A stretch of DNA of 64,000 nucleotides. Origin: Chloracidobacterium sp. N. Its GTDB lineage: Bacteria; Acidobacteriota; Blastocatellia; Chloracidobacteriales; Chloracidobacteriaceae. Positions 3,229 through 63,892 of the stretch are shown piece by piece; the stretch's first letter is position 1; every line of letters starts with the position of its first letter. The notes under the pieces are model-generated. The model ran no database searches. It was given only the letters and a program-made list of their open reading frames with translations, and was not told where the DNA came from. The DNA is taken from positions 806,001 to 870,000 of the forward strand of contig NZ_CP072643.1 in NCBI RefSeq assembly GCF_018304765.1, written 5' to 3'. The translations under genes and the position numbers were made by a program.

Positions 3229-3364
3229 TCGGCAGCCCCGGTCACATTGAGCACACAACCAGACTGGCACATTTCGGACGCCATTCTCGCTTGTAGGCGT
3301 GAGCGGTTTCCGGGGGAGTTGTTCTGCTCCCGGCCGCGCAAGTTCACCGACAAGGAGCATGGCC

Positions 3365-5674
3365 ATGCGTTGCCTCCGGGTTTTCGCGCCGCTTCCCGTT
3401 GGGAGAAGGTTTTCCCCGTGGTGGTTTTCAGTTCGTCTCGGTGTGCTGTTCACGGTTCTGTGCTTTCTCAGTCTCCACGCCGGTCAACCCGTTGCCGGTG
3501 TTACGCCACAGGACCTGCCCGCTCTGAATGAAGTCGGGCGGGCTGTTCTGAACTGGGATGGCCAGTCTCCGGTGACGCTGGCCGAGCGCATCCGGCAGCT
3601 CGTGCCCAATGTACCTGTGATTGATACCCTGCGCGCACTCAACCTGGCTCAGCAGCGGGGACAACTTGCGGAGGACGTGCGGCTCAAACGGATGCTCAAG
3701 TACCTGCCCCGTGCCCACACGCTGGCCCAGGCTGCACCGGGGGTCGGGCAACTCATCGCCGATGATCCGCTGCTCTCCGATCCAGCCTACACCTCGCTGC
3801 TGAGCCTGGCCCGCGCCGTTGAGAAAGCCACACCGGCCGAACTCGACATCCTGCTCACACAACATTTCGGCGATTACCCGGACGCCGGTTTGCAGGAACT
3901 CGGCAACCGGCTGACGGAGATGATCCTGCGGTATTCGGAGGTCGCCTACCAGGCCGAGATTGACCGCATCATCCTGGAGGAGCCGACGCCGGAACGCCGC
4001 CGGCAGGCTTTGGACCGGCTGGAAAATGATTTTCGGATCATTGAGACCAGGGGCGACCCCGGCGGCTCCTATGCCGAACATGCCCGGGCCGCCCGGCAAA
4101 CCATCGAAAAGGTGCGGCAGGCCGAAGCGGACGGCACGATAAATGCCCTGCGCCAGCAGCGCCTTGCTTTGGAAACAATCCGCCAGGCCGAAACCGGGAA
4201 AAAGAACCGTCTGAAACAGCTTCTGGAACTCACCGGACTGGGACAGGAACTGCTCAAACGGGCCGGTCAGATGCTGGACATCGGACGTATCCTCCCACCG
4301 GCCGAGGGACGCTACCGAAGCGGCACGGTTGATCTGTTGACCGAGATCGGCGCTTCGGCGCGGGCCCAAGGGCTGAAGGTGGTGGATTGTCTGGGGTCAG
4401 CGTCCATGTGGGCCGGTGTGCTGAACAGCATCACCACGGCGCAAAGCGATGTCGAACTCGTCATGGCGCTGAGCCGGACCCTCGTGGAAAACACCTTTTT
4501 CGGGATGGTCTTCCAATCGCTGTACGCCTTCAAACAGGGTGACAACGCGGCTTTTCTCCGGGCCGTGATGTATCTGCTCGTGCCTGAAACGGCGCTGCCG
4601 GCGCTGGTCGAAGCCCTCGGCGAAACGGTCATCACCCTGGGGGCACAGACGCTGTTCGACCAGCAACTCGACCGCCTCTACGCCGCCAGTCGCTTTGATG
4701 ACCAGGCACGGCTCATTGATCTGGGGGGGCTGGGTGTCGGCGGGGTGCCCGGCGCACGCCAGTTTGTGGACGCCATGTGTGACGGAGAAGCCGAAGCCGT
4801 GGCGCAGGATTTCATCCGCCGCTCAAAGGCGACGGACTTCGGTTCGGGCGCCAATCGCCTGGCCATTCTGGCGCTGGCCAAAGCCATCCAGTCCACTATC
4901 AACCAGGGGCGGCCGGGACTGTTTACCCAGGATGGCCCGCTGATGCGGGCCTGTGCGGGAACCCGCAAGGTCAATGAGGACCTCACTGACCTGAGCAAAA
5001 TTTGGGGCGTGAATCTGCCCCAGGATGCGACCACGGCGGAAGCGTGGGCGTCGTCTCTTGACCGGGGGCAGCGCCGGGCGCTCGATACCCTCTTGGCAGC
5101 CTGTGAGTCCTGGCGGCAACAGGCCCGGCAAGCCACGGCCGAAGCCATTGTGCGTACCTTTGAAGAACGCCGGGCCGCCGAGCTGGCGCTGGATACCGAC
5201 CGTGGCCGGCAGGTCGTCGAGCAATATAAACGGCTGCAAACCGTTTTCAGGGCACTGGAAATCACGGCGGAAGGGACGCGGTCGCTGGAGGCGGAAGGCG
5301 CACCCTACAGCGTCATCAAGGGGTGGCTGATGTCTGACCGGGAGAAACAGGTCGCCGCCGTCAAAGCCATCCAGAAGTTTCTTCGCGTGTACGAAGGTGT
5401 TGTGCAGGCACGGGACGCCATTGAAGGCGCCATGATCAGCCGGTTGGGCCGGGTCGTCCGACCACGGCCCCTGACGCGCTCGCTGCCGTTGACCGCCAAG
5501 CCCGAACTCGATGCCGACCTGCTCCGGCGCTACATCACCGATATAGCCAAAGCTGAGGCTTCGGTGACGCATGACCTGGAACTCATCAAGCGGGCCAAAC
5601 TCGAAGGATGGGCTTGTTTTGACCCGCAAGCCCGCGGTCATCAAAGGCCCCTACGGGTGGGAGCCGGACTCTAG
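3365..5674 (+). pseudogene. 5' part of a large exported helical protein, frameshifted and split by an IS607 element
   Basis: The open frame gives about 769 residues. ATG 3365 is preferred because AAGGAG (3352-3357) sits seven bases upstream; ATG 3359 is too close. An Arg-rich N-terminus followed by LGVLFTVLCFLSLHA looks like a signal peptide. The rest is mostly helical with long charged segments and no domain I recognise. From about base 5605 the GC-rich third-position pattern moves to the +1 frame (KDGLVLTRKPAVIKGPYGWEPDS), so the last 20-odd residues in the original frame are probably not native. A one-base change near 5600-5606 would explain this. The true reading frame continues at 7690 after removal of the 2,015-bp insertion, into the fragment ending at 8272. 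The function is unknown. Confidence 0.7.
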
Positions 5675-50596: not shown

Positions 50597-51006
50597 CCGT
50601 TTGTTTCCTCGTTTCCCGGTACATCAAAGATTCTGGCCCTCAAGGACCGCCCCCAGGGCGGGTAGCATATAGCATATTTCGGCCGCCCTTTGCCGTTAGC
50701 CTTCGGGGGGAGCAACCCTGTACATCGGCCCGGCCTCACAAGCTGCGGCCGGCTGGCTGTGTCGGGGTCGGTGCTCCCCGGAATGTTTCATCTCCGTATC
50801 GTGGGCGGCCGCGGGAGTTCTTCCCGTAACCTCCCGTTCATCTTTCAGCCGGGGCCTAACTATTTTTCCAGAAAAGACTTAGCCAGACGCAACACGCGCC
50901 TGACCGGGGCGATAACGTGGTGTGGAAGGCCCATGTGTGGTCCACCCGGCACCAGAGCCGTTACCTATTTTTTCATTCGCCCCTGTGGTCTTTGAAAGGT
51001 TTTGTC
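50597..51006. other. Divergent intergenic region
   Basis: These 410 bases must contain promoters for the hypothetical/VWA/OmpA unit and for the nuclease gene. A TAGCATA direct repeat occurs at about 50662-50676. I see no reliable promoter pair, RNA gene or mobile sequence. Confidence 0.5.
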
Positions 51007-52818
51007 ATGTCGCGCATCGGTAATCCCTTCGCTGCCCTCATCTCCCGTCTGCAACGTGCGCGGGTGGAAGACCAGTCCATTGCTCCCCGGACGCGCCCCC
51101 AACCGGCGCCGACCCCCTCCGAAACGACGCCGGCACGCCCGACGACGTTCAGCCCGACTTCGCTCGATGCCGCCCACACGGCCCGGGCCGGTTTCAACCA
51201 GGCCGACCGACTGCGCGCCAACCTCTTCTCGATGTTCCGCCCGGCCGCTGCGCCCACGGCTGCCACGTCTGCGGCTGCCACAGCCGGCAATACCCAGACG
51301 GTAACGGCTTCAGCCACCCCCAACGCTGCCATCCGTGACTTCCAGACAACGACTTCCACGATTGCCATCACCGAGGATTTGAAAACGACCGGCGTGCGCG
51401 TGGATGTCAACATCGCGCACAGCTACGCCAGCGATCTGGTGGTCAAGCTGCGCTCGCCCGAAGGGCGCGAAGTGCTGCTGCGCAATCGTGAGGGCGGACG
51501 CGGCACCGGTACGGTCAGCTTCACGGCGAACCCATCCGACTTCAACGGGGTTTCAACCAAAGGCAACTGGACGCTGGTGGTCGAAGACCGTGCTGGCGGC
51601 GATGTCGGTACGCTGCGCAACTGGTCGCTGGCGCTGACCGGCGCCCGGCCCGCGCCAGAGCCGCCGCCGGCGGCCGGCGGCCGTACGGTGACGCAAACGG
51701 CCACGCCGAACGCGGCCATCCGCGACCTCCAGACGACAACCTCAACGATTGCCATCAATGACGATCTGAAGACGACCGGCGTGCGCGTGGATGTCAACAT
51801 TGCCCACACCTACGCCAGCGATCTGGTGGTGAAACTGCGTTCGCCCCAGGGACAGGAAGTGACGCTGCGCAACCGTGAAGGCGGGCGGGGCAACGGTACG
51901 GTCAGCTTCACGGCCAATCCTGCCGATTTCAACGGAACGGACGCCAAAGGCGAATGGACGCTCATCGTGGAAGACCGCGAGCGGGCCGATGTGGGAACGC
52001 TGCGGAGCTGGTCGCTGTCGGTCACGGGCACGGACCGCACGCCGCCGCCGGCGCCCCCGCGCCCGACGCCGCCACCGGACAACAGCCCGCTGCTGCTGGG
52101 CAATCCCTCGAATGCCGTCCCGGATGTGCGCCAGGAAAACAACTACCTCATCGTCCGGGATCAGTTCACGGCTTCCTACAACCGGGCTGACGCCAAACCG
52201 AACTGGGTGGCCTGGCACACCGACCAGTCGCACCTCGGACGCGAAGGGCGTGGCAAGTTCGATGAAAACAGCACCGACAACCAGCTTCCCGAAGGCTGGC
52301 GGCGCGTTACGACGTTTGACTACACCGGCAGCGGCTATGACCGTGGGCACCACCTGCCGAGCGCCGACCGTACAGCTTCGCGCGCGGCCAACAACGGCAC
52401 ATTTCTGATGACGAATGTCCTTCCCCAGGCGCCGGACAACAACCAGGGGCCTTGGGAGCGGATGGAACGGTACGTCCGCGACCAGATTCGCCAGAACGAC
52501 ATGGAGGCCTACACCATCATGGGCAGCTACGGCGAAGTGGGCCGGATTCCAGGGCAGGGAGGTGACGCCAACATCGCCATTCCCGAACGGGTCTGGAAAG
52601 TGGTGGTGCTCATCCCACGGGGTGATAACGACCTGGAGCGTATCAACCGGGATACGCAGGTCATCGCGGTGGACATGCCGAACCGCCAGGGCATGCGCAA
52701 CGACAACTGGGAAAACTACCGGGTGTCGGTGGCGGACATCGAGCGTGCAACCAACACGCAGTTCTTTACGAACCTGCCGCCGGAAGTGCAGGCGGCGCTG
52801 CGCGAGAAGGGGCGTTAG
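51007..52818 (+). CDS. DNA/RNA non-specific endonuclease with two P domains
   Basis: A 603-residue protein; ATG 51007 has AAAGG nine bases upstream. An Ala/Thr/Pro-rich N-terminal 95 residues shows no clear signal peptide. Two P (proprotein convertase) domains of about 115 residues follow at about 98-215 and 228-345, closely similar (IAHSYASDLVVKLRSPEG and IAHTYASDLVVKLRSPQG; GNWTLVVEDRAGGDVGTL and GEWTLIVEDRERADVGTL). A C-terminal NUC1-type nuclease carries the catalytic DRGHHLPSADR (about 444-454) and a metal-binding Asn in LMTNVLPQAPDNNQGPW. P domains usually sit on secreted proteases and aid folding or adhesion, so pairing them with a nuclease is uncommon. Secretion is likely but the route is unknown. 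Confidence 0.87.
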   Translation: MSRIGNPFAALISRLQRARVEDQSIAPRTRPQPAPTPSETTPARPTTFSPTSLDAAHTARAGFNQADRLRANLFSMFRPAAAPTAATSAAATAGNTQTVTASATPNAAIRDFQTTTSTIAITEDLKTTGVRVDVNIAHSYASDLVVKLRSPEGREVLLRNREGGRGTGTVSFTANPSDFNGVSTKGNWTLVVEDRAGGDVGTLRNWSLALTGARPAPEPPPAAGGRTVTQTATPNAAIRDLQTTTSTIAINDDLKTTGVRVDVNIAHTYASDLVVKLRSPQGQEVTLRNREGGRGNGTVSFTANPADFNGTDAKGEWTLIVEDRERADVGTLRSWSLSVTGTDRTPPPAPPRPTPPPDNSPLLLGNPSNAVPDVRQENNYLIVRDQFTASYNRADAKPNWVAWHTDQSHLGREGRGKFDENSTDNQLPEGWRRVTTFDYTGSGYDRGHHLPSADRTASRAANNGTFLMTNVLPQAPDNNQGPWERMERYVRDQIRQNDMEAYTIMGSYGEVGRIPGQGGDANIAIPERVWKVVVLIPRGDNDLERINRDTQVIAVDMPNRQGMRNDNWENYRVSVADIERATNTQFFTNLPPEVQAALREKGR

Positions 52819-52863
52819 TCCGGTTGATTGGCCAGTCCTGATTGGCCAGTCCGCACCATTCGG

Positions 52864-52898
52864 CCGCACGGTGGTTGGCTTCCGCCGTGCGGTTTTTT
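52864..52898 (+). terminator. Rho-independent terminator after the nuclease gene
   Basis: CCGCACGG (52864-52871) pairs with CCGTGCGG (52885-52892) and is followed immediately by TTTTTT (52893-52898). It lies 46 bases after the nuclease stop. A 13-bp direct repeat (GATTGGCCAGTCC, from about 52826) precedes it. Confidence 0.88.
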
Positions 52899-52949
52899 CT
52901 GCGGGGCTGACCGGCGTCATCGCGCCGGGGACATGCCGGGCGGGCCTGT

Positions 52950-55220
52950 CTATCCTGGCCAGCCGTGACGGATTTCGTTCTCCGGCTGCCTGAGTCCGCC
53001 GCCGGCTTCAGCGAGCAGCCCCAGGTGGGCCACCACCCGCCGCAGGAGCCGTCTCATGTCGCCGGAAGGAACTCCCTGGACGGTGAAAACACGGTTTTGC
53101 TTCAAAGCATCCTTCAGCACATCGCGCAGAAGTTTTACCTCTGCCGGCGTCGCGTCGGTGAGGGCCAGCAGAACCCGGTCATCGGCTCCCTGCACAAACG
53201 ACCGGAGCGCCTGAACGTCCTCTGGTGCGATTTCAAACCTGGCTGGCAGAAGCCGCTTTGCCGGTGGTGCCTCGGCGGGTTTGTCAACCGGGATGAGCCG
53301 GTTGTGCGCTTTCGCATGTGGGCTGACCTCACAGCCGCTCAATGACGGTTCGTGGAAGGCCGCCTGCTCCTTTCTGAGGCTGTCAAGAACGGTCTGAATC
53401 GCGTGGCGGTTCGTGCCAAAGATGAACACCGTCTCCAGTGGCTGTACGGCATCCTTGAGATGCCCGAAGAGATTCGCCTCCACGTCGTTGGCGTTACAGA
53501 GCGGAAGCAGTCGCTGGCGTTTGTTTTTGATGGGTTCAATCCGCACCCCGCGCCCTACCGACTGAAGAATGAATTTCCGGGCATCCGGGCCTATGCCGAT
53601 GTTGATGTAGCCAATCACATTCGGGCGGTTGGAGTCCCAGCCCTCATAGAAGGAGCGGGAGCCCAGCAGGATGTTGATGTCTGATGCATCCCCGTTCAGA
53701 CCGGCAAACAGACTTTCATTGTCAAATCGCTCCACGATCTCATAACCCGTGAGCTTCTCTTTGAGCCAGGCGGAGATGTCGCCAATCCTGATGAGGGCAA
53801 AGGGGCGGTCAGCCGTCTTCAGTTTGAACGCCATCTCCTGACGATTGGAGGGGCGTAGCAAAACCTCAATCTCCCCGTGGCTGCTGGCGTTGAACACGCA
53901 CTGACAGAGGTCTTCCGGCAAAAGGCTGTCCCATACAGCCGGGTTGATGCGCACCTTTTCATCTTCAAAGAGAAACTCAGGTTGTTGCTCCAGTTCCCGG
54001 CGCAGCTCTTCCTTGGCTGCCTGCCACAGGTCAGGTGGTACGCCTTGCCGGGCCAGGAGCTCCAGCTCACGGAAAAACCGTTCCAGGTCGGCATCCCGGG
54101 GGTTGACCGAGTTCACCAGCAGCAGCAGCAGCGGGCGGTGGTAAAGGCCAGCCGGCTGGACCGTGCGCTCATACACTTTCCGCACATACGCCAGCATGAT
54201 CAGCATCTTCAGCACCACCTTCCGCTTTTCCGCGTCCGGGTCGTCTTCCGGTTTGTCCCGGAAGGCGCTCAGTTCCGGCTGCACCACCAGCAGGTGTTTG
54301 CCGTAGCCCCGGCGGATGTACTCCGCGAGGTTGAAGTTACAGACCGTGGTGGCGATGTCGCGTGGGTCGGTGAAGGTGGCGGAGAAGTTGAACAGGAAAC
54401 CGTTGCGCGAGAGGATCGAGTAAATGTGCTGGCGTTTGGAGTCCTCGCGGTCGCCTTTGTGGGCCTCGTCCAGCAACACAAACCATTTTCCGTCATTATC
54501 GTAGTTGCGGAAGTCTAAAATCTTTTCCTTCTGCTGGGCGCTGAGGTTGTCAGAACGGTAGTAAAAGACGGTGATCCCCTGTTCCCGGAACAGGGAAGAT
54601 CGCTCGCGCTTGACCGCGGCGTAGTCTTTCAGTTCATGCAGCACAATCGGCGTGTCACTGTGGCTTGTATTGAACTCCGCCACATGGCGCCTGAGCTGTT
54701 CGATGAGGTCGGTGCGGTGGGTGAGAAACAGAATATCGCACGGCGGCACTTCTCCGGCCTGAATCAGCCGCCCCAGCCGTTCCATGAGCTTGACAATGAC
54801 AACGGTCTTGCCGCTGCCCGTGGCCATCCAGAAGTTCAGGCGGTTGATAAAGGCTTCGTAGCTGATGTTCCCGGTTTGGGCGTGAATATAATCGGCATAG
54901 TAGTTCAGGAGCAGATCAGCCAAGGCAGGTTTCAGCTCAATGGAGAAGTCCTCTGAAAGTCCGTTGTCGCCATACCACTGCCAGAACCGCATCTTGCGCT
55001 GACGGTTGGCGTCGTCGGCAGGGTGAGGCGGGCCGTTACCAAAATCTTCGTAATACTTCCACAGGGCCTTGAGTGCGTTCTGGAGCGCCCGTTGCTGGTA
55101 ATCGAACAGGCGCTTCGTAGGGGAGAAGTGCGAAAGGTCATCCATCCACCCCTGGGGCAGACGGCTGTCGGGAATATCTTCTGCCATGTATTGCATGTGG
55201 ATGCGCGTCATTGTCGTCAC
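52950..55220 (-). CDS. Res-like DEAD/DEAH helicase, C-terminal nuclease region missing
   Basis: A 756-residue SF2 helicase resembling type III restriction Res subunits. Motif I is MATGSGKTVVIV (about 135), the DEAH-box variant is VLLDEAHKGDRE (about 250), motif III is FNFSATFTDPR and motif VI is ILQSVGRGVRIEP (about 550). The frame runs through a conserved-looking helical region and then stops abruptly after ENEIRH with GWPG. In related proteins the sequence continues past this type of motif into a PD-(D/E)xK nuclease domain, which is absent here. The DNA downstream is the unrelated terminator region of the P-domain nuclease gene. Translocase activity may remain, but cleavage by this subunit is doubtful. 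It lies 27 bp from the 212-residue protein. Confidence 0.82.
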   Translation of the reverse strand: MTTMTRIHMQYMAEDIPDSRLPQGWMDDLSHFSPTKRLFDYQQRALQNALKALWKYYEDFGNGPPHPADDANRQRKMRFWQWYGDNGLSEDFSIELKPALADLLLNYYADYIHAQTGNISYEAFINRLNFWMATGSGKTVVIVKLMERLGRLIQAGEVPPCDILFLTHRTDLIEQLRRHVAEFNTSHSDTPIVLHELKDYAAVKRERSSLFREQGITVFYYRSDNLSAQQKEKILDFRNYDNDGKWFVLLDEAHKGDREDSKRQHIYSILSRNGFLFNFSATFTDPRDIATTVCNFNLAEYIRRGYGKHLLVVQPELSAFRDKPEDDPDAEKRKVVLKMLIMLAYVRKVYERTVQPAGLYHRPLLLLLVNSVNPRDADLERFFRELELLARQGVPPDLWQAAKEELRRELEQQPEFLFEDEKVRINPAVWDSLLPEDLCQCVFNASSHGEIEVLLRPSNRQEMAFKLKTADRPFALIRIGDISAWLKEKLTGYEIVERFDNESLFAGLNGDASDINILLGSRSFYEGWDSNRPNVIGYINIGIGPDARKFILQSVGRGVRIEPIKNKRQRLLPLCNANDVEANLFGHLKDAVQPLETVFIFGTNRHAIQTVLDSLRKEQAAFHEPSLSGCEVSPHAKAHNRLIPVDKPAEAPPAKRLLPARFEIAPEDVQALRSFVQGADDRVLLALTDATPAEVKLLRDVLKDALKQNRVFTVQGVPSGDMRRLLRRVVAHLGLLAEAGGGLRQPENEIRHGWPG

Positions 55221-55247
55221 ACTGTATCGGTCAGCTCATCCGATGCC

Positions 55248-55886
55248 TTAACTTTTACCTATGCACTTCAGAAGTTTTTCGTGTGTATCTATCTCACCCT
55301 TGCGCAGCATGTTATCTGAAGGGCTAAGGAAAAAAGCAGCCGAGTGCCAGCTTTCGTCAATGTTGTACGCCTTTTTGTTATTTATCCTTAGCCTGTATTT
55401 TGATTTCAGATAACTGATGAAAGCTTCACTTTTCAGCCATTTGTTGCAGTAGGTCTTAAGCAGCAAAGGGAGTTCCGTCTTTCCGGTTGCGCCTTTCCCG
55501 CCGACATAGAAGACGTGCACGTGGGCATCACAGGTTTTCAGTTTGCCGTATTTTTCGACTTTGATTTTCTTGAGAAAAGTGGAAATTTCTTTTGGTGGTA
55601 TCCAGTGGTTCAATGTTTTCAGGCAGTTTGTCTCATACGCTTTATCAATAAAGCTGAATGCGGAAATGTAATCCAGGCCGATGTTACCTGTTATGGTGTA
55701 CCAGCGCGCTTCCTCCTCTTTCACCTGAACCAGAAATTGTGTGCCATCGGGCAATATCACTTTGGCGTCATGATATGGGGTATTGTCTTTTTGAATGTTC
55801 CATTCATGTGGAATCAGGCCGGACTTTGCTTTCCAGATGTCCAGAATGTGTGATTCTTTCCTGCTGTAGCGACTGAAGTGGTCCAC
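55248..55886 (-). CDS. Hypothetical protein with D...QxK nuclease-like motif (DUF4365-like)
   Basis: A 212-residue protein, visibly richer in A/T and in Lys/Asn/Ile than the rest of the window, which indicates recent transfer. The segment HDAKVILPDGTQFLVQVK gives D-x13-Q-x-K, a spacing seen in PD-(D/E)xK nucleases, including DUF4365-type proteins with QVK. The rest has alternating strands and helices (RWYTITGNIGLDYISAF, AHVHVFYVGGKG) and a Lys-rich C-terminus. No family is certain. It is placed between the Mod methylase (12 bp) and the Res-like helicase (27 bp), where it could provide or replace nuclease activity. This is inference from motif and position. Confidence 0.6.
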   Translation of the reverse strand: MDHFSRYSRKESHILDIWKAKSGLIPHEWNIQKDNTPYHDAKVILPDGTQFLVQVKEEEARWYTITGNIGLDYISAFSFIDKAYETNCLKTLNHWIPPKEISTFLKKIKVEKYGKLKTCDAHVHVFYVGGKGATGKTELPLLLKTYCNKWLKSEAFISYLKSKYRLRINNKKAYNIDESWHSAAFFLSPSDNMLRKGEIDTHEKLLKCIGKS

Positions 55887-55898
55887 ACGGTTTACCTC

Positions 55899-58637
55899 CT
55901 ACCACCAAATTAGTCTCTTGATCTGTCGCCAATCGAGATGCTCCAAATCCAACTGCTGACCATCCTCAAATTGCACGGATGCAGGGATGGCTGACGGCTG
56001 AAGTCCCGGTTGAATGCGTCGAACCCGCTTGCCTGTCAGATTGGAAAGTGTTTCGGGCAGGTCTATGTTCCTGTAAAGTTTGCCCAGGTTCAACTGCACC
56101 TCATCCAGCTCCGGGCTTATCTCCAGGGCATCCAGCATCTTCGGATCGCGCAGAAAAACATACTGACACGGGTCGGCCCCGGCCGGCGGTGTGAAAAGAC
56201 TGCTGTCTTCGTAGCGGGCGCGACTCAGGGTATCTTCAAACTGCTCAAGCTCATAGTACTTCACGAAGTGACTGATGCCCTTGCCATCCGTTTGCGCTCT
56301 GCCGTCTTTCCACTTGTCCGAAAAGATGACCTTCTTGATGCGGGGGATCAGCAGGGTGTAAAAGTATTCACCCATTTCGACGAGAATGTATTTTCTTTTC
56401 CGGCCATCTTCCCGGCAGAGATTCAGGCAGGCGTGCGCTGTCGTGCCTGAACCTGCGAAGAAATCCATGACCGTATCACCTGATGCTGAAGCAACCTGCA
56501 GGAGCAGGCGAACCAGGGAAACCGGCTTCGGCTTTATCCGTTGCACGTCTGTTTCAGGGAACAGTGCCGACAGTTCGCGGCTGGCATCGGCGTTGGTGCC
56601 CACCGGCACGCCATTATCCGCGAGCAGACTTTTGAGCAGATTGCCCTTGGGGTTGCCCTCAGCATCGTGGAGATAGTTTTTGATTTGTGGCTCATAAGTG
56701 CCTTTTGAGGTACGTCTGAACTGAATCAGACCCGACTGGGCATGCTTCCACATCTGTTCTCTGGAAATCAGCCAGGTGGCTTTGCCGGGCGGGGCAATAC
56801 GGATGACGGTCTCAGCCAGGTTTTCATCTTCCGTCCTCGTACGCAGATCATAGACCTCACTCCCATGCACTGCATATCGAAAGCCCACCAGTTGCAGCGT
56901 TTCGGGATGCACCAGCAGCTCATAGTTCAGGTTGGGACGTTTTTCCTTTGTCTGCTGACTTGGGCCCAGCAGTCCCATCCAGCGGTATGCACCTCTCCCG
57001 TCCACGTTGCTGAATTCATCCAGTTTTTGCTCGCTGAGGATGTTGTGATAGAGAAACGCCTCTTCGTTGCCTTGCACTAAGACATATTCGTGGTTCTCTG
57101 TCATGTCCCTTTCGGAGAAACTCCCTATCCCCCCCCGCTTTCTCCAGATGAGATTACCAAAGCGTTTGGGGAAGATACTTGAAGCAAGCATTTGTAACCG
57201 GTAGCTTTCGCCCTCCTGTGGATTCAGGTCTCCGATGCTGATAAAGATGATACCGTCGCCTGCCAGCAATGACTTGGCAACTGCAAGCCGGTTTTCCATC
57301 ATGGTCAGCCATGAGGAATGTTTGAAACTGTCAACATACAGAAATTCATCAACGCCGGTGTTGTAGGGTGGATCAATGTAGATGGCTTTCAGTTTCCCCT
57401 GCCATTTGGGCAGAAGCGTATGCAGTGCCTGGTAGTTTTCACTTCTGATGAGCCAGCCATCCAGTGCTTCATCGAGGTTTTCAAAAAGGGCGACGACGTG
57501 AAGTTCCAAATCGGGAAAATATCTGGTGTCAACCGGAAGATATTGGTAGCGCGGATGAAGGTGTCTTCCGTCTATGAGGTTTTCCTGCCAGATGTGTCCA
57601 GGCTGAAACCTGTCGTCCACCATGCCCAGATCGCGCCACTCCTGGAGCTGGCCCGGCATGCCCGGATGGCTCAGAATCTGCTGTAGTATCTCCATCCCGC
57701 CCGGTTGTCTGGCAATCCGATCCAGTGTCATCACGTAGTGGCTGTTCAGCACAAACTTCGGCTTGTTCCAGATGTTGACCAGCTCATCCTCGAAAGCCGC
57801 GATGAAATCAATCACCCGATAGGCAATGTGTTTGAGGGCCTGCAACTGTTTGAGGCGTGTTTCCGTCCACCCGACAGGTGGTGCTTCACCGGGTCGGCCC
57901 AGCAGGTACTGCCACATCCACAGGTCAAACTGCTCGCGCAGAAAGCCCCTGGCATCCTTGCAGAGAAAGTAATCCAGCTTGCTTTGGCGTTCAAAAAGAC
58001 GGAATGCCTTTTGGAGGGTCTCGGCAGAAGGGACAGCGGCTGTATAGCGGTTCAAACCCAACCCATCCCGAATGGCCAGACGGATCGTGTCAATCCTGGT
58101 CTGCCGCCCTTTCTCCGGGTAGTGAACCGTGAAGATGATCACATCATGTTCCGGTCTGTGCTCCCTGAAGGTATAGAAGAGTTCGCGTTTCTCGTTGGCA
58201 CGCTTGTGCTCCAGTTGTGAAGCATCGAAATGGAAGCGGAAGCCATCCACTTCCACGGTCATACTCTGAAACAGGTGGTCAGTTTTGACATAGTAAAGCC
58301 GGGCTGTTTTCCAAAACAGCACAACGTCATGTTCATTGGTATAGACCTGCTCGTAGATGCTCTGGTGATATGGGGTGAAAACAAAGCCAATGGAACCGCC
58401 CTCGGTAAAGTAGCGGCGGAAGAATGTGTAGAGCTTGTCGAACAGCTCCTCACGGAAATCGGGGAACGAGTTCAGTACGCTTTCGGTTTCCTGTCTCAGG
58501 TGCGGCTCCATCACGCTTTTGAAATAGTGCGACTTGATGCGCATGAGGTTGATATAGCCTGATGCTCCCTCGACTGGCGCACCGATGAACACTTCTTCCA
58601 GTCTTTCAAAGAATTTTTTTTCATTCGTGTTTTTCAT
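55899..58637 (-). CDS. Type III-like DNA methyltransferase (Mod)
   Basis: A 912-residue beta-class N6-adenine methylase. Motif IV is AIYIDPPYNTGVDEFLYVD (about 420) and motif I is DTVMDFFAGSGTTAHACLNL (about 725), in the beta order of type III Mod proteins. The region between them should hold the target-recognition domain. The first 380 or so residues form an additional N-terminal domain (FFERLEEVFIGAPVEGASGYINLMRIKSHYF...) not present in the smallest Mods. The C-terminal LDLEHLDWRQIKRLIWW is intact. Base composition is lower in GC than the neighbouring helicase. It is followed by the QxK protein and the Res-like helicase; the 1,717-residue helicase gene lies 101 bp upstream. Confidence 0.9.
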   Translation of the reverse strand: MKNTNEKKFFERLEEVFIGAPVEGASGYINLMRIKSHYFKSVMEPHLRQETESVLNSFPDFREELFDKLYTFFRRYFTEGGSIGFVFTPYHQSIYEQVYTNEHDVVLFWKTARLYYVKTDHLFQSMTVEVDGFRFHFDASQLEHKRANEKRELFYTFREHRPEHDVIIFTVHYPEKGRQTRIDTIRLAIRDGLGLNRYTAAVPSAETLQKAFRLFERQSKLDYFLCKDARGFLREQFDLWMWQYLLGRPGEAPPVGWTETRLKQLQALKHIAYRVIDFIAAFEDELVNIWNKPKFVLNSHYVMTLDRIARQPGGMEILQQILSHPGMPGQLQEWRDLGMVDDRFQPGHIWQENLIDGRHLHPRYQYLPVDTRYFPDLELHVVALFENLDEALDGWLIRSENYQALHTLLPKWQGKLKAIYIDPPYNTGVDEFLYVDSFKHSSWLTMMENRLAVAKSLLAGDGIIFISIGDLNPQEGESYRLQMLASSIFPKRFGNLIWRKRGGIGSFSERDMTENHEYVLVQGNEEAFLYHNILSEQKLDEFSNVDGRGAYRWMGLLGPSQQTKEKRPNLNYELLVHPETLQLVGFRYAVHGSEVYDLRTRTEDENLAETVIRIAPPGKATWLISREQMWKHAQSGLIQFRRTSKGTYEPQIKNYLHDAEGNPKGNLLKSLLADNGVPVGTNADASRELSALFPETDVQRIKPKPVSLVRLLLQVASASGDTVMDFFAGSGTTAHACLNLCREDGRKRKYILVEMGEYFYTLLIPRIKKVIFSDKWKDGRAQTDGKGISHFVKYYELEQFEDTLSRARYEDSSLFTPPAGADPCQYVFLRDPKMLDALEISPELDEVQLNLGKLYRNIDLPETLSNLTGKRVRRIQPGLQPSAIPASVQFEDGQQLDLEHLDWRQIKRLIWW

Positions 58638-58738
58638 GAATGCTTTTCACCCATGGGAAGCGTGCTTCGTGCACCTTCCCGAATGCCACGTGCTGCCTGC
58701 CGGGTGCCGTGTGTGTACCAGGCTCGGAAAACTCTGGC

Positions 58739-63892
<5,154 letters not shown>

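What the first reader, a model, noticed from the sequence alone, without database searches (positions are those of the whole stretch)
52950..63892. Four-gene defence-like operon: DUF1998 helicase-nuclease, Mod, QxK protein, Res-like helicase
All four genes run on the minus strand with gaps of 101, 12 and 27 bp. The order joins a MrfA/DruE/DrmA-like DUF1998 helicase, here with a C-terminal Vsr/DUF559-like segment, to a type III-like Mod and a Res-like helicase. I know DUF1998 helicases from DISARM and Druantia and Mod/Res pairs from type III restriction, but not this combination. The lower GC of the Mod and QxK genes suggests transfer as a block. Whether the large helicase is a true partner or only a neighbour is open.
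Basis: partly seen in the sequence, partly recalled or inferred. Interest (0 to 1): 0.78.

Follow-up and report, generated by a model that had tools for sequence, protein, structure and literature searches.

The report
ARMADA helicase beside truncated type III restriction
The four genes look like two known kinds of bacterial anti-virus system lying side by side, the second probably added later and missing its DNA-cutting part, rather than one new four-gene system.

Summary
The four genes are real and at the stated places, but they are not one system. The 1,717-aa helicase is ArmC of an ARMADA type I operon; its partners, a SNF2 helicase (ArmA) and a PglX/DrmMI-like methylase (ArmB), lie just past the window edge. 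Of 28 other ArmC loci examined, 22 have both ArmA and ArmB, 3 have one, and none has this Mod or Res; none of 45 Mod or Res loci has ArmC. A same-genus genome (G001) has ARMADA with 94% identical ArmC at this site but no trio; another (G004) has neither here. So Mod/QxK/Res is a separate block, most simply a later insertion. Res is 756 aa, against 977-1,124 aa in 33 unbroken relatives; the missing C-terminus carries a nuclease-like motif and fold, so the module probably methylates but cannot cut, unless QxK cuts in trans. The Mod-Res gap exceeds 200 bp in 24 of 39 relatives and, in the 10 gaps scanned, holds other genes, often of defence (CBASS, SIR2-PIWI, HepT), so QxK is best read as cargo; no relative of it was found. 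Verdict: known kinds, chance neighbours, low to moderate interest.

The parts
58739..63892 (-). ArmC: YprA/DUF1998-type helicase with a C-terminal Vsr/DUF559-like segment; last gene of an ARMADA type I operon whose ArmB and ArmA lie beyond the window (G000:C2:874325-883017)
   Evidence: Pfam DEAD, Helicase_C, MZB; neighbours ArmA/ArmB; tree
55899..58637 (-). Mod: type III-like DNA methyltransferase; IDPPYNTG precedes DFFAGSGTT in the sequence
   Evidence: PADLOC MTase_III 684 bits full length; Pfam N6_N4_Mtase; motifs read from the translation
55248..55886 (-). QxK: 212-aa protein with no family and no relative found; possible PD-(D/E)xK-like pattern E11, D40, Q54-V-K56 (by eye); probably cargo between Mod and Res
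   Evidence: no family; no relative; model not usable, pLDDT 36
52950..55220 (-). Res helicase, C-terminally truncated: aligns with relatives to residue 752 of 756; the C-terminal region with the nuclease-like domain is absent
52937..58756 (.). Block (Mod-QxK-Res, and the last 18 bases of ArmC that do not align) absent from the colinear genome G001, where 46 bp lie instead
   Evidence: blastn against G001
50917..52818 (+). Left flank: P-domain plus DNA/RNA non-specific endonuclease gene, matched in 6 of 6 other genomes of the genus (in pieces in two); not part of the defence genes

Best explanation
Two independent defence modules abut. (1) The helicase is ArmC of an ARMADA type I operon, in the order ArmA - ArmB - four Rpn-like genes - ArmC. 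By inference from the families and from published work on an E. coli type II ARMADA (direct, non-abortive protection; each gene needed), these proteins act on incoming phage DNA: SNF2 and DUF1998 helicases move on it, a PglX-like methylase is needed, and the ArmC Vsr-like domain is the likely nuclease. (2) Next to it sits a type III-like Mod-Res module with a small extra gene (QxK) between Mod and Res. Mod and the Res helicase domain look intact, but Res stops before the C-terminal region in which its relatives carry a PD-(D/E)xK-like nuclease. Most likely Mod methylates its site and the module cannot restrict. Shown: gene content, neighbourhoods, the G001 site without the trio, the truncation. 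Inferred: insertion rather than deletion in G001, and every biochemical step.
For: ArmA (962 aa) and ArmB (1935 aa) lie on the same strand upstream. ArmA and ArmB are both in the fetched stretch around ArmC in 22 of 28 loci, one of them in 3, neither in 3 (ArmC incomplete or at a contig end); this Mod or Res in 0 of 28. Tree: window ArmC sister to G001, inside a 25-row clade (SH-aLRT 99) and apart from E. coli DruE and ArmC type II. G001 is colinear on both sides of the trio but lacks it and has no Mod at E 1e-10. G004: the flank gene lies about 216 bp from sequence that is beyond ArmA in the window's genome, so ARMADA and trio are both absent at this site. Res: own-genome search with a 998-aa relative finds only its residues 2-750; 33 unbroken relatives are 977-1,124 aa; the lost part has invariant SE, PD and DPKG in 7 of 7 sequences and a fold nearest to the Bax1 endonuclease (Z 8.7, rmsd 2.6 over 101 residues). 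PMC12458937 (abstract, passages, section on new classes) describes this gene set.
Against: Within the phylum sample ArmC-like and Mod matches share 4 of 297 genomes where 0.67 is expected (P 0.002; 0.013 without the window's genome), though in the other three they are on different contigs or about 1.9 Mb apart, and genome size and relatedness are uncorrected. The four genes run in one direction with short gaps, so co-transcription is possible. The E. coli reference rows have long branches; three loci of the window's clade (L072, L097, L098) also hold an ArmD-like gene, so type I versus II is not cleanly settled here. Deletion of the trio in G001 is not excluded. Twelve of the 25 genomes with ArmC-like matches were not examined for neighbours.
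Confidence: 0.85

Rival explanations
1. Split restriction enzyme: the small QxK protein is a PD-(D/E)xK-type nuclease that works in trans with the truncated Res helicase and Mod, as the R- and N-proteins do in CglI/NgoAVII.
For: Res lacks its own nuclease region; QxK shows E11, D40 and Q54-V-K56, spaced like a QxK nuclease core (by eye from the translation); precedent CglI/NgoAVII, where a separate helicase/ATPase is needed for cleavage by the R-protein (PMC4267653 abstract).
Against: Mod-Res pairs of relatives are compact and have no gene between (e.g. L006, L007, L008). Res stops about 28 bp from the block edge, and its last four codons match neither the Res relatives nor G001, which looks like accidental loss. 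QxK has no detectable nuclease family and its model is not usable.
Confidence: 0.12
2. A true four-gene system: ArmC, Mod, QxK and Res act together as a new defence system.
For: Same strand, gaps of 101, 12 and 27 bp; excess of genomes that hold both kinds of gene.
Against: No second instance in 28 ArmC loci or 45 Mod or Res loci; close relative G001 keeps ArmC with ArmA and ArmB (its ArmB ORF broken) without the trio.
Confidence: 0.03
3. The trio is ancestral at this site and was deleted in G001; the window genome then lost the Res 3' end separately.
For: One genome comparison cannot give the direction on its own; 46 bp in G001 align with neither flank.
Against: Lower GC of Mod and QxK than of ArmA, ArmB and ArmC; among the 6 other genus genomes only a 161-residue partial Mod match in one.
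Confidence: 0.15

Closest known systems
ARMADA type I (Bell et al. 2025 preprint, PMC12458937)
   Same: YprA/DUF1998 helicase with C-terminal Vsr-like segment, BrxHII/DrmD/DpdE-like SNF2 helicase and PglX/DrmMI-like methylase; the ArmA-ArmB-ArmC order is described there for type I in many archaea and cyanobacteria
   Different: Four tandem Rpn-like genes sit between ArmB and ArmC; ArmB carries many short repeats; a type III-like module sits directly behind ArmC
Type III restriction-modification (Mod/Res)
   Same: Mod is a full-length PADLOC MTase_III match; Res has the ResIII helicase
   Different: Res lacks the C-terminal nuclease region; a 212-aa gene of no known family sits between Mod and Res
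Druantia (DruE)
   Same: ArmC's best PADLOC 2.0.0 hits are DruE models (284 and 281 bits); no ARMADA model is among the hits shown
   Different: No DruH-like neighbour; ArmA/ArmB neighbours instead; E. coli DruE is on a distant branch
CglI/NgoAVII R-M (PMC4267653, abstract seen)
   Same: Three genes: methylase, a separate helicase/ATPase and a separate restriction protein
   Different: Likeness of layout only; QxK is not shown to be a nuclease

Membership tests
ARMADA type I | YprA-like helicase with DEAD, Helicase_C and DUF1998-type zinc domain | tested here: met
ARMADA type I | C-terminal Vsr-type nuclease on the YprA homologue | tested here: inconclusive
   DUF559 only E 0.056; window protein has SELERR, ADFFY and DGSVH where most relatives have SELER, PDF and DGxxH; Chlorohelix, Hydrogenimonas, Acidithiobacillus and Paracoccus rows lack these; not folded
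ARMADA type I | BrxHII/RapA-like SNF2 helicase gene in the operon | tested here: met
   L002:12130-15018: Pfam SNF2-rel_dom and Helicase_C; PADLOC DpdE 616, DrmD 313, BrxHI/BrxHII 219 bits
ARMADA type I | PglX-like methyltransferase gene in the operon | tested here: met
   L002:6326-12133: Pfam Eco57I, N6_Mtase; PADLOC DrmMI 227 bits, PglX 54 bits
ARMADA type I | No GajB-like ArmD (its presence marks type II in the preprint) | tested here: met
   E. coli ArmD query hits no window or L002 ORF; it does hit L072, L097 and L098, which fall in the same tree clade, so this does not separate the types cleanly here
ARMADA type I | Placement with ARMADA type I in a tree of YprA homologues | tested here: inconclusive
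   groups with loci that carry ArmA and ArmB (25 rows, SH-aLRT 99) and apart from E. coli ArmC type II and DruE; quick search, long outgroup branches; the preprint's type I reference was not at hand
Type III restriction-modification | Mod with DPPY before the SAM motif (beta class; label recalled) | tested here: met
   motif order read; PADLOC MTase_III 684 bits; N6_N4_Mtase
Type III restriction-modification | Res with SF2 helicase domain | tested here: met
   ResIII E 1.5e-16
Type III restriction-modification | Res with C-terminal endonuclease domain | tested here: not met
   absent from the window Res and not found elsewhere in the genome at E 0.01
Druantia type III | DruH next to DruE | tested here: not met
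   E. coli DruH query hits only the E. coli reference locus
DISARM | DUF1998 part encoded by a gene separate from the helicase (DrmB beside DrmA) | tested here: not met
   DEAD, Helicase_C and MZB are in one protein

The most novel reading that the evidence does not exclude
The truncated Res and the small QxK protein form a split restriction machine: a type III-like Mod and motor helicase with its nuclease supplied by a separate QxK protein taken up in the Mod-Res gap, a site that in relatives is repeatedly filled by other defence genes (CBASS, SIR2-PIWI, HepT).
Probability: 0.12. Interest if true: 0.55.

Novelty: new member of a known kind. Interest (0 to 1): 0.33.

Why it matters
It removes a false new system and shows how such a reading arises: the window edge cut off ArmC's own partners and a separate module came to lie beside it. 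It gives a close genome pair that differs by one defence block next to an ARMADA operon. The wider point is that the gap between Mod and Res in this type III-like family often holds unrelated defence or toxin-antitoxin genes, which makes it a place to look for uncharacterised ones such as QxK.

Tried and rejected
Rejected: the four-gene system. Rejected: filing the helicase as Druantia on the strength of PADLOC's best hits; gene neighbourhood and tree favour ARMADA. Rejected: Res shortened by a frameshift or sequencing slip, because sequence shared with G001 begins about 28 bp after the last residue that aligns with relatives, and no C-terminal remnant was found elsewhere in the genome.

Led nowhere: relatives of QxK in viral contigs (none), 39 near genomes (own only), plasmids at E 0.01 (none), phages at E up to 1 (four records at E 0.3-0.4, in capsid genes where annotated), 396 phylum genomes (besides the own one a single hit at E 0.005 inside a 773-aa ORF that looks like an outer-membrane receptor by eye, judged chance). 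QxK model pLDDT 36, so not searched. PDB sequence search for Res (none) and QxK (best E 0.33). ArmC in viral contigs (none). Foldseek alone on the Res C-terminus gave no E below 0.001 (best 3.8e-03, Bax1 complex). Literature searches for defence genes between mod and res and for a split or truncated Res listed no paper I recognised as reporting it; only listings were seen. Genome contigs was scanned once, with Mod, so QxK was not searched there.

Limits of counts: of 25 genomes with ArmC-like matches I fetched wide neighbourhoods of 12 besides the window's; the 12 with weaker matches were not examined. Of 81 plasmid records I fetched 16 (15 counted, one E. coli kept as a type II reference). 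Of 24 Mod-Res gaps over 200 bp I scanned genes from 10 against Pfam, picked by eye and not always all genes of a gap; the other 14 were not scanned. Loci are often cut by contig ends or by the stretch I fetched.

Full report
What is there. Four minus-strand ORFs lie at the stated coordinates with gaps of 101, 12 and 27 bp. Along the plus strand the order is Res, QxK, Mod, helicase, and the helicase's start codon lies 108 bp from the window end.

The helicase fits ARMADA. Reading past the window shows, on the same strand upstream of the helicase, four tandem Rpn-like ORFs (my label, by recalled resemblance; PADLOC gives one of them only a weak 'putative invertase' hit), a 1935-aa methylase and a 962-aa SNF2 helicase (Pfam; PADLOC DrmMI 227 bits for the methylase; DpdE 616, DrmD 313 and BrxHI/BrxHII 219 bits for the helicase). 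A 2025 preprint, of which I read the abstract, passages and one section (PMC12458937), names this set ARMADA: a YprA/DUF1998 helicase with C-terminal Vsr-type nuclease (ArmC), a BrxHII-like helicase (ArmA) and a PglX-like methylase (ArmB). Type II adds a GajB-like ArmD; the ArmA-ArmB-ArmC order is reported for type I in many archaea and cyanobacteria. The best PADLOC 2.0.0 hit of the helicase is DruE (284 bits).

Neighbourhood counts. Around 28 other ArmC loci (13 from 12 genomes of the phylum search, 15 plasmid records), both ArmA and ArmB were found in 22, one in 3 (G092, G201, Thermus L076; the rest lies outside the stretch held), neither in 3 (G010, G074, G016, where ArmC is incomplete or at a contig end). 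The window's Mod or Res was found in none. Around 45 Mod or Res loci (33, two plasmids, seven, three viral contigs), ArmC was found in none. Within 297 phylum genomes, ArmC-like matches (E 1e-30) occur in 25 and Mod (E 1e-40) in 8, both in 4 (G000, G016, G097, G209), against 0.67 expected (P 0.002; 0.013 without G000). In the other three genomes they lie on different contigs or about 1.9 Mb apart. This excess is told against my reading; size and relatedness of genomes are uncorrected.

Tree. A quick maximum-likelihood tree of 31 helicases puts the window protein as sister of G001 (94% identity), inside a 25-row clade (SH-aLRT 99) that holds the plasmid ARMADA-like rows; E. coli DruE, E. coli ArmC type II and four weaker phylum matches fall outside, several on long branches. 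Three loci in the clade (L072, L097, L098) also have an ArmD-like gene, so the type I label rests on the window operon's own gene content.

The trio is separate. G001 matches the window at 50855-52936 and from 58757 on past the window end, and between them has 46 bp where the window has 5.8 kb. It has no Mod at E 1e-10. In G004 the left-flank gene is followed after about 216 bp by sequence that lies beyond ArmA in the window's genome, so at this site the whole 25-kb ARMADA-plus-trio stretch is missing. In G005 and G006 the flank gene has other neighbours. The simplest order is ARMADA first, trio later; deletion in G001 is possible. Mod and QxK are lower in GC (52.5% and 43.7%) than ArmA, ArmB and ArmC (66.6%, 62.4%, 63.4%); Res is 58.4%.

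Res is truncated. Alignment with relatives stops at residue 752 of 756. In 39 loci holding both Mod and Res (of 45 given), 33 have Res ORFs of 977-1,124 aa; the other six are split by an insertion sequence (L005), at or near a contig end (L009, L011, L012) or broken (L020, L029). The lost stretch has invariant SE, PD and DPKG residues in seven of seven aligned sequences. A model of it (mean pLDDT 67; its second half mostly 70-90) has the Bax1 endonuclease as best match (Z 8.7, rmsd 2.6, 101 residues), with Can2, McrC, PfoI and MunI, which I recall as PD-(D/E)xK nucleases, at Z 5-7 below it; the tool warns that Z under 8 may mean only a common arrangement, and Foldseek alone gave no E under 0.001. 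A full-length relative finds no second copy of the region in the genome.

QxK and the Mod-Res gap. QxK has no family and no relative in the collections searched (one hit at E 0.005 judged chance). It shows E11, D40 and Q54-V-K56, like a QxK nuclease core, read by eye and not tested; its model is unusable (pLDDT 36). In relatives the Mod-Res gap exceeds 200 bp in 24 of 39 loci (some, such as L020, L029 and L034, are partly explained by broken genes). Genes from 10 of these gaps, picked by eye, were scanned with Pfam: a CD-NTase (SMODS) plus Cap15 (L004), PIWI plus SIR2 (L111), DUF6119 (L110), DUF559 (L009), AAA_21 (L013), AAA_15 (L033), a PHP/AAA protein (L030), a Schlafen AlbA_2 protein (L012) and HepT (L031, L114). 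MNT-like (L014, L018) and VapBC-like (L023, L027) genes are judged from sequence only. In 13 of 39 loci the two genes lie within 20 bp or overlap, and no matched control of other operon gaps was run. QxK is therefore best read as one more cargo gene.

Mechanism and verdict. I commit to two neighbouring modules: an ARMADA type I operon, and a type III-like module whose Mod is probably active and whose Res probably cannot cut. The rival of most interest is a split enzyme with QxK as nuclease (CglI/NgoAVII as layout precedent; PMC4267653 abstract), at about 0.12. Novelty: new member of a known kind.

Noticed in passing
Mod-Res gap in L004, L009, L012, L013, L030, L031, L033, L110, L111, L114: The gap between Mod and Res of this type III-like family often holds other defence or toxin-antitoxin genes, including a CBASS-type pair and a SIR2-PIWI pair; 24 of 39 loci have a gap over 200 bp, 10 of them scanned. 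No matched control of other operon gaps was run.
   Followed up: partly
L038:6805-15965, L115:5632-15100, L117:4429-13432: A DrmD-like SNF2 helicase (PADLOC PDLC02619, 518-676 bits) lies directly before Mod and Res in three loci (one Segatella, two genomes of this phylum), a compact three-gene set.
   Followed up: partly
ArmB, L002:6326-12133 (-), beyond the window; G001 L062:4719-10369: ArmB is full of 7-bp and 36-bp GC-rich repeats. In G001 the reading frame is broken near a repeat where the two genomes differ by 7 bp, which might mean phase variation of the methylase or a sequencing slip.
   Followed up: partly
ArmB of G000 versus G001: The two genes diverge sharply in a few short stretches (around nt 3300-3630, 4080-4250 and 4820-4860) between otherwise similar parts, as if recognition segments had been exchanged.
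   Followed up: no
L002:9997-10371 (-): A 124-aa four-helix-bundle-like ORF overlaps ArmB on the same strand in another frame, also in G001; four-helix-bundle genes are annotated between the ArmA- and ArmB-like genes in L077 and L078.
   Followed up: partly
L002:2083-6258 (-): Four tandem copies of an Rpn-like gene between ArmB and ArmC; G001 has one at the same place.
   Followed up: no
L122:4444-9808: A phage-like contig (IMG/VR, with portal-like and primase-like ORFs, judged by eye) carries a compact Mod-Res pair with full-length Res.
   Followed up: no
L093, L097, L098: Some ARMADA-like operons also hold extra genes between or beside their parts: VapBC between ArmA and ArmB, an NYN gene, a 3'-5' exonuclease/ArmD-like gene.
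   Followed up: no
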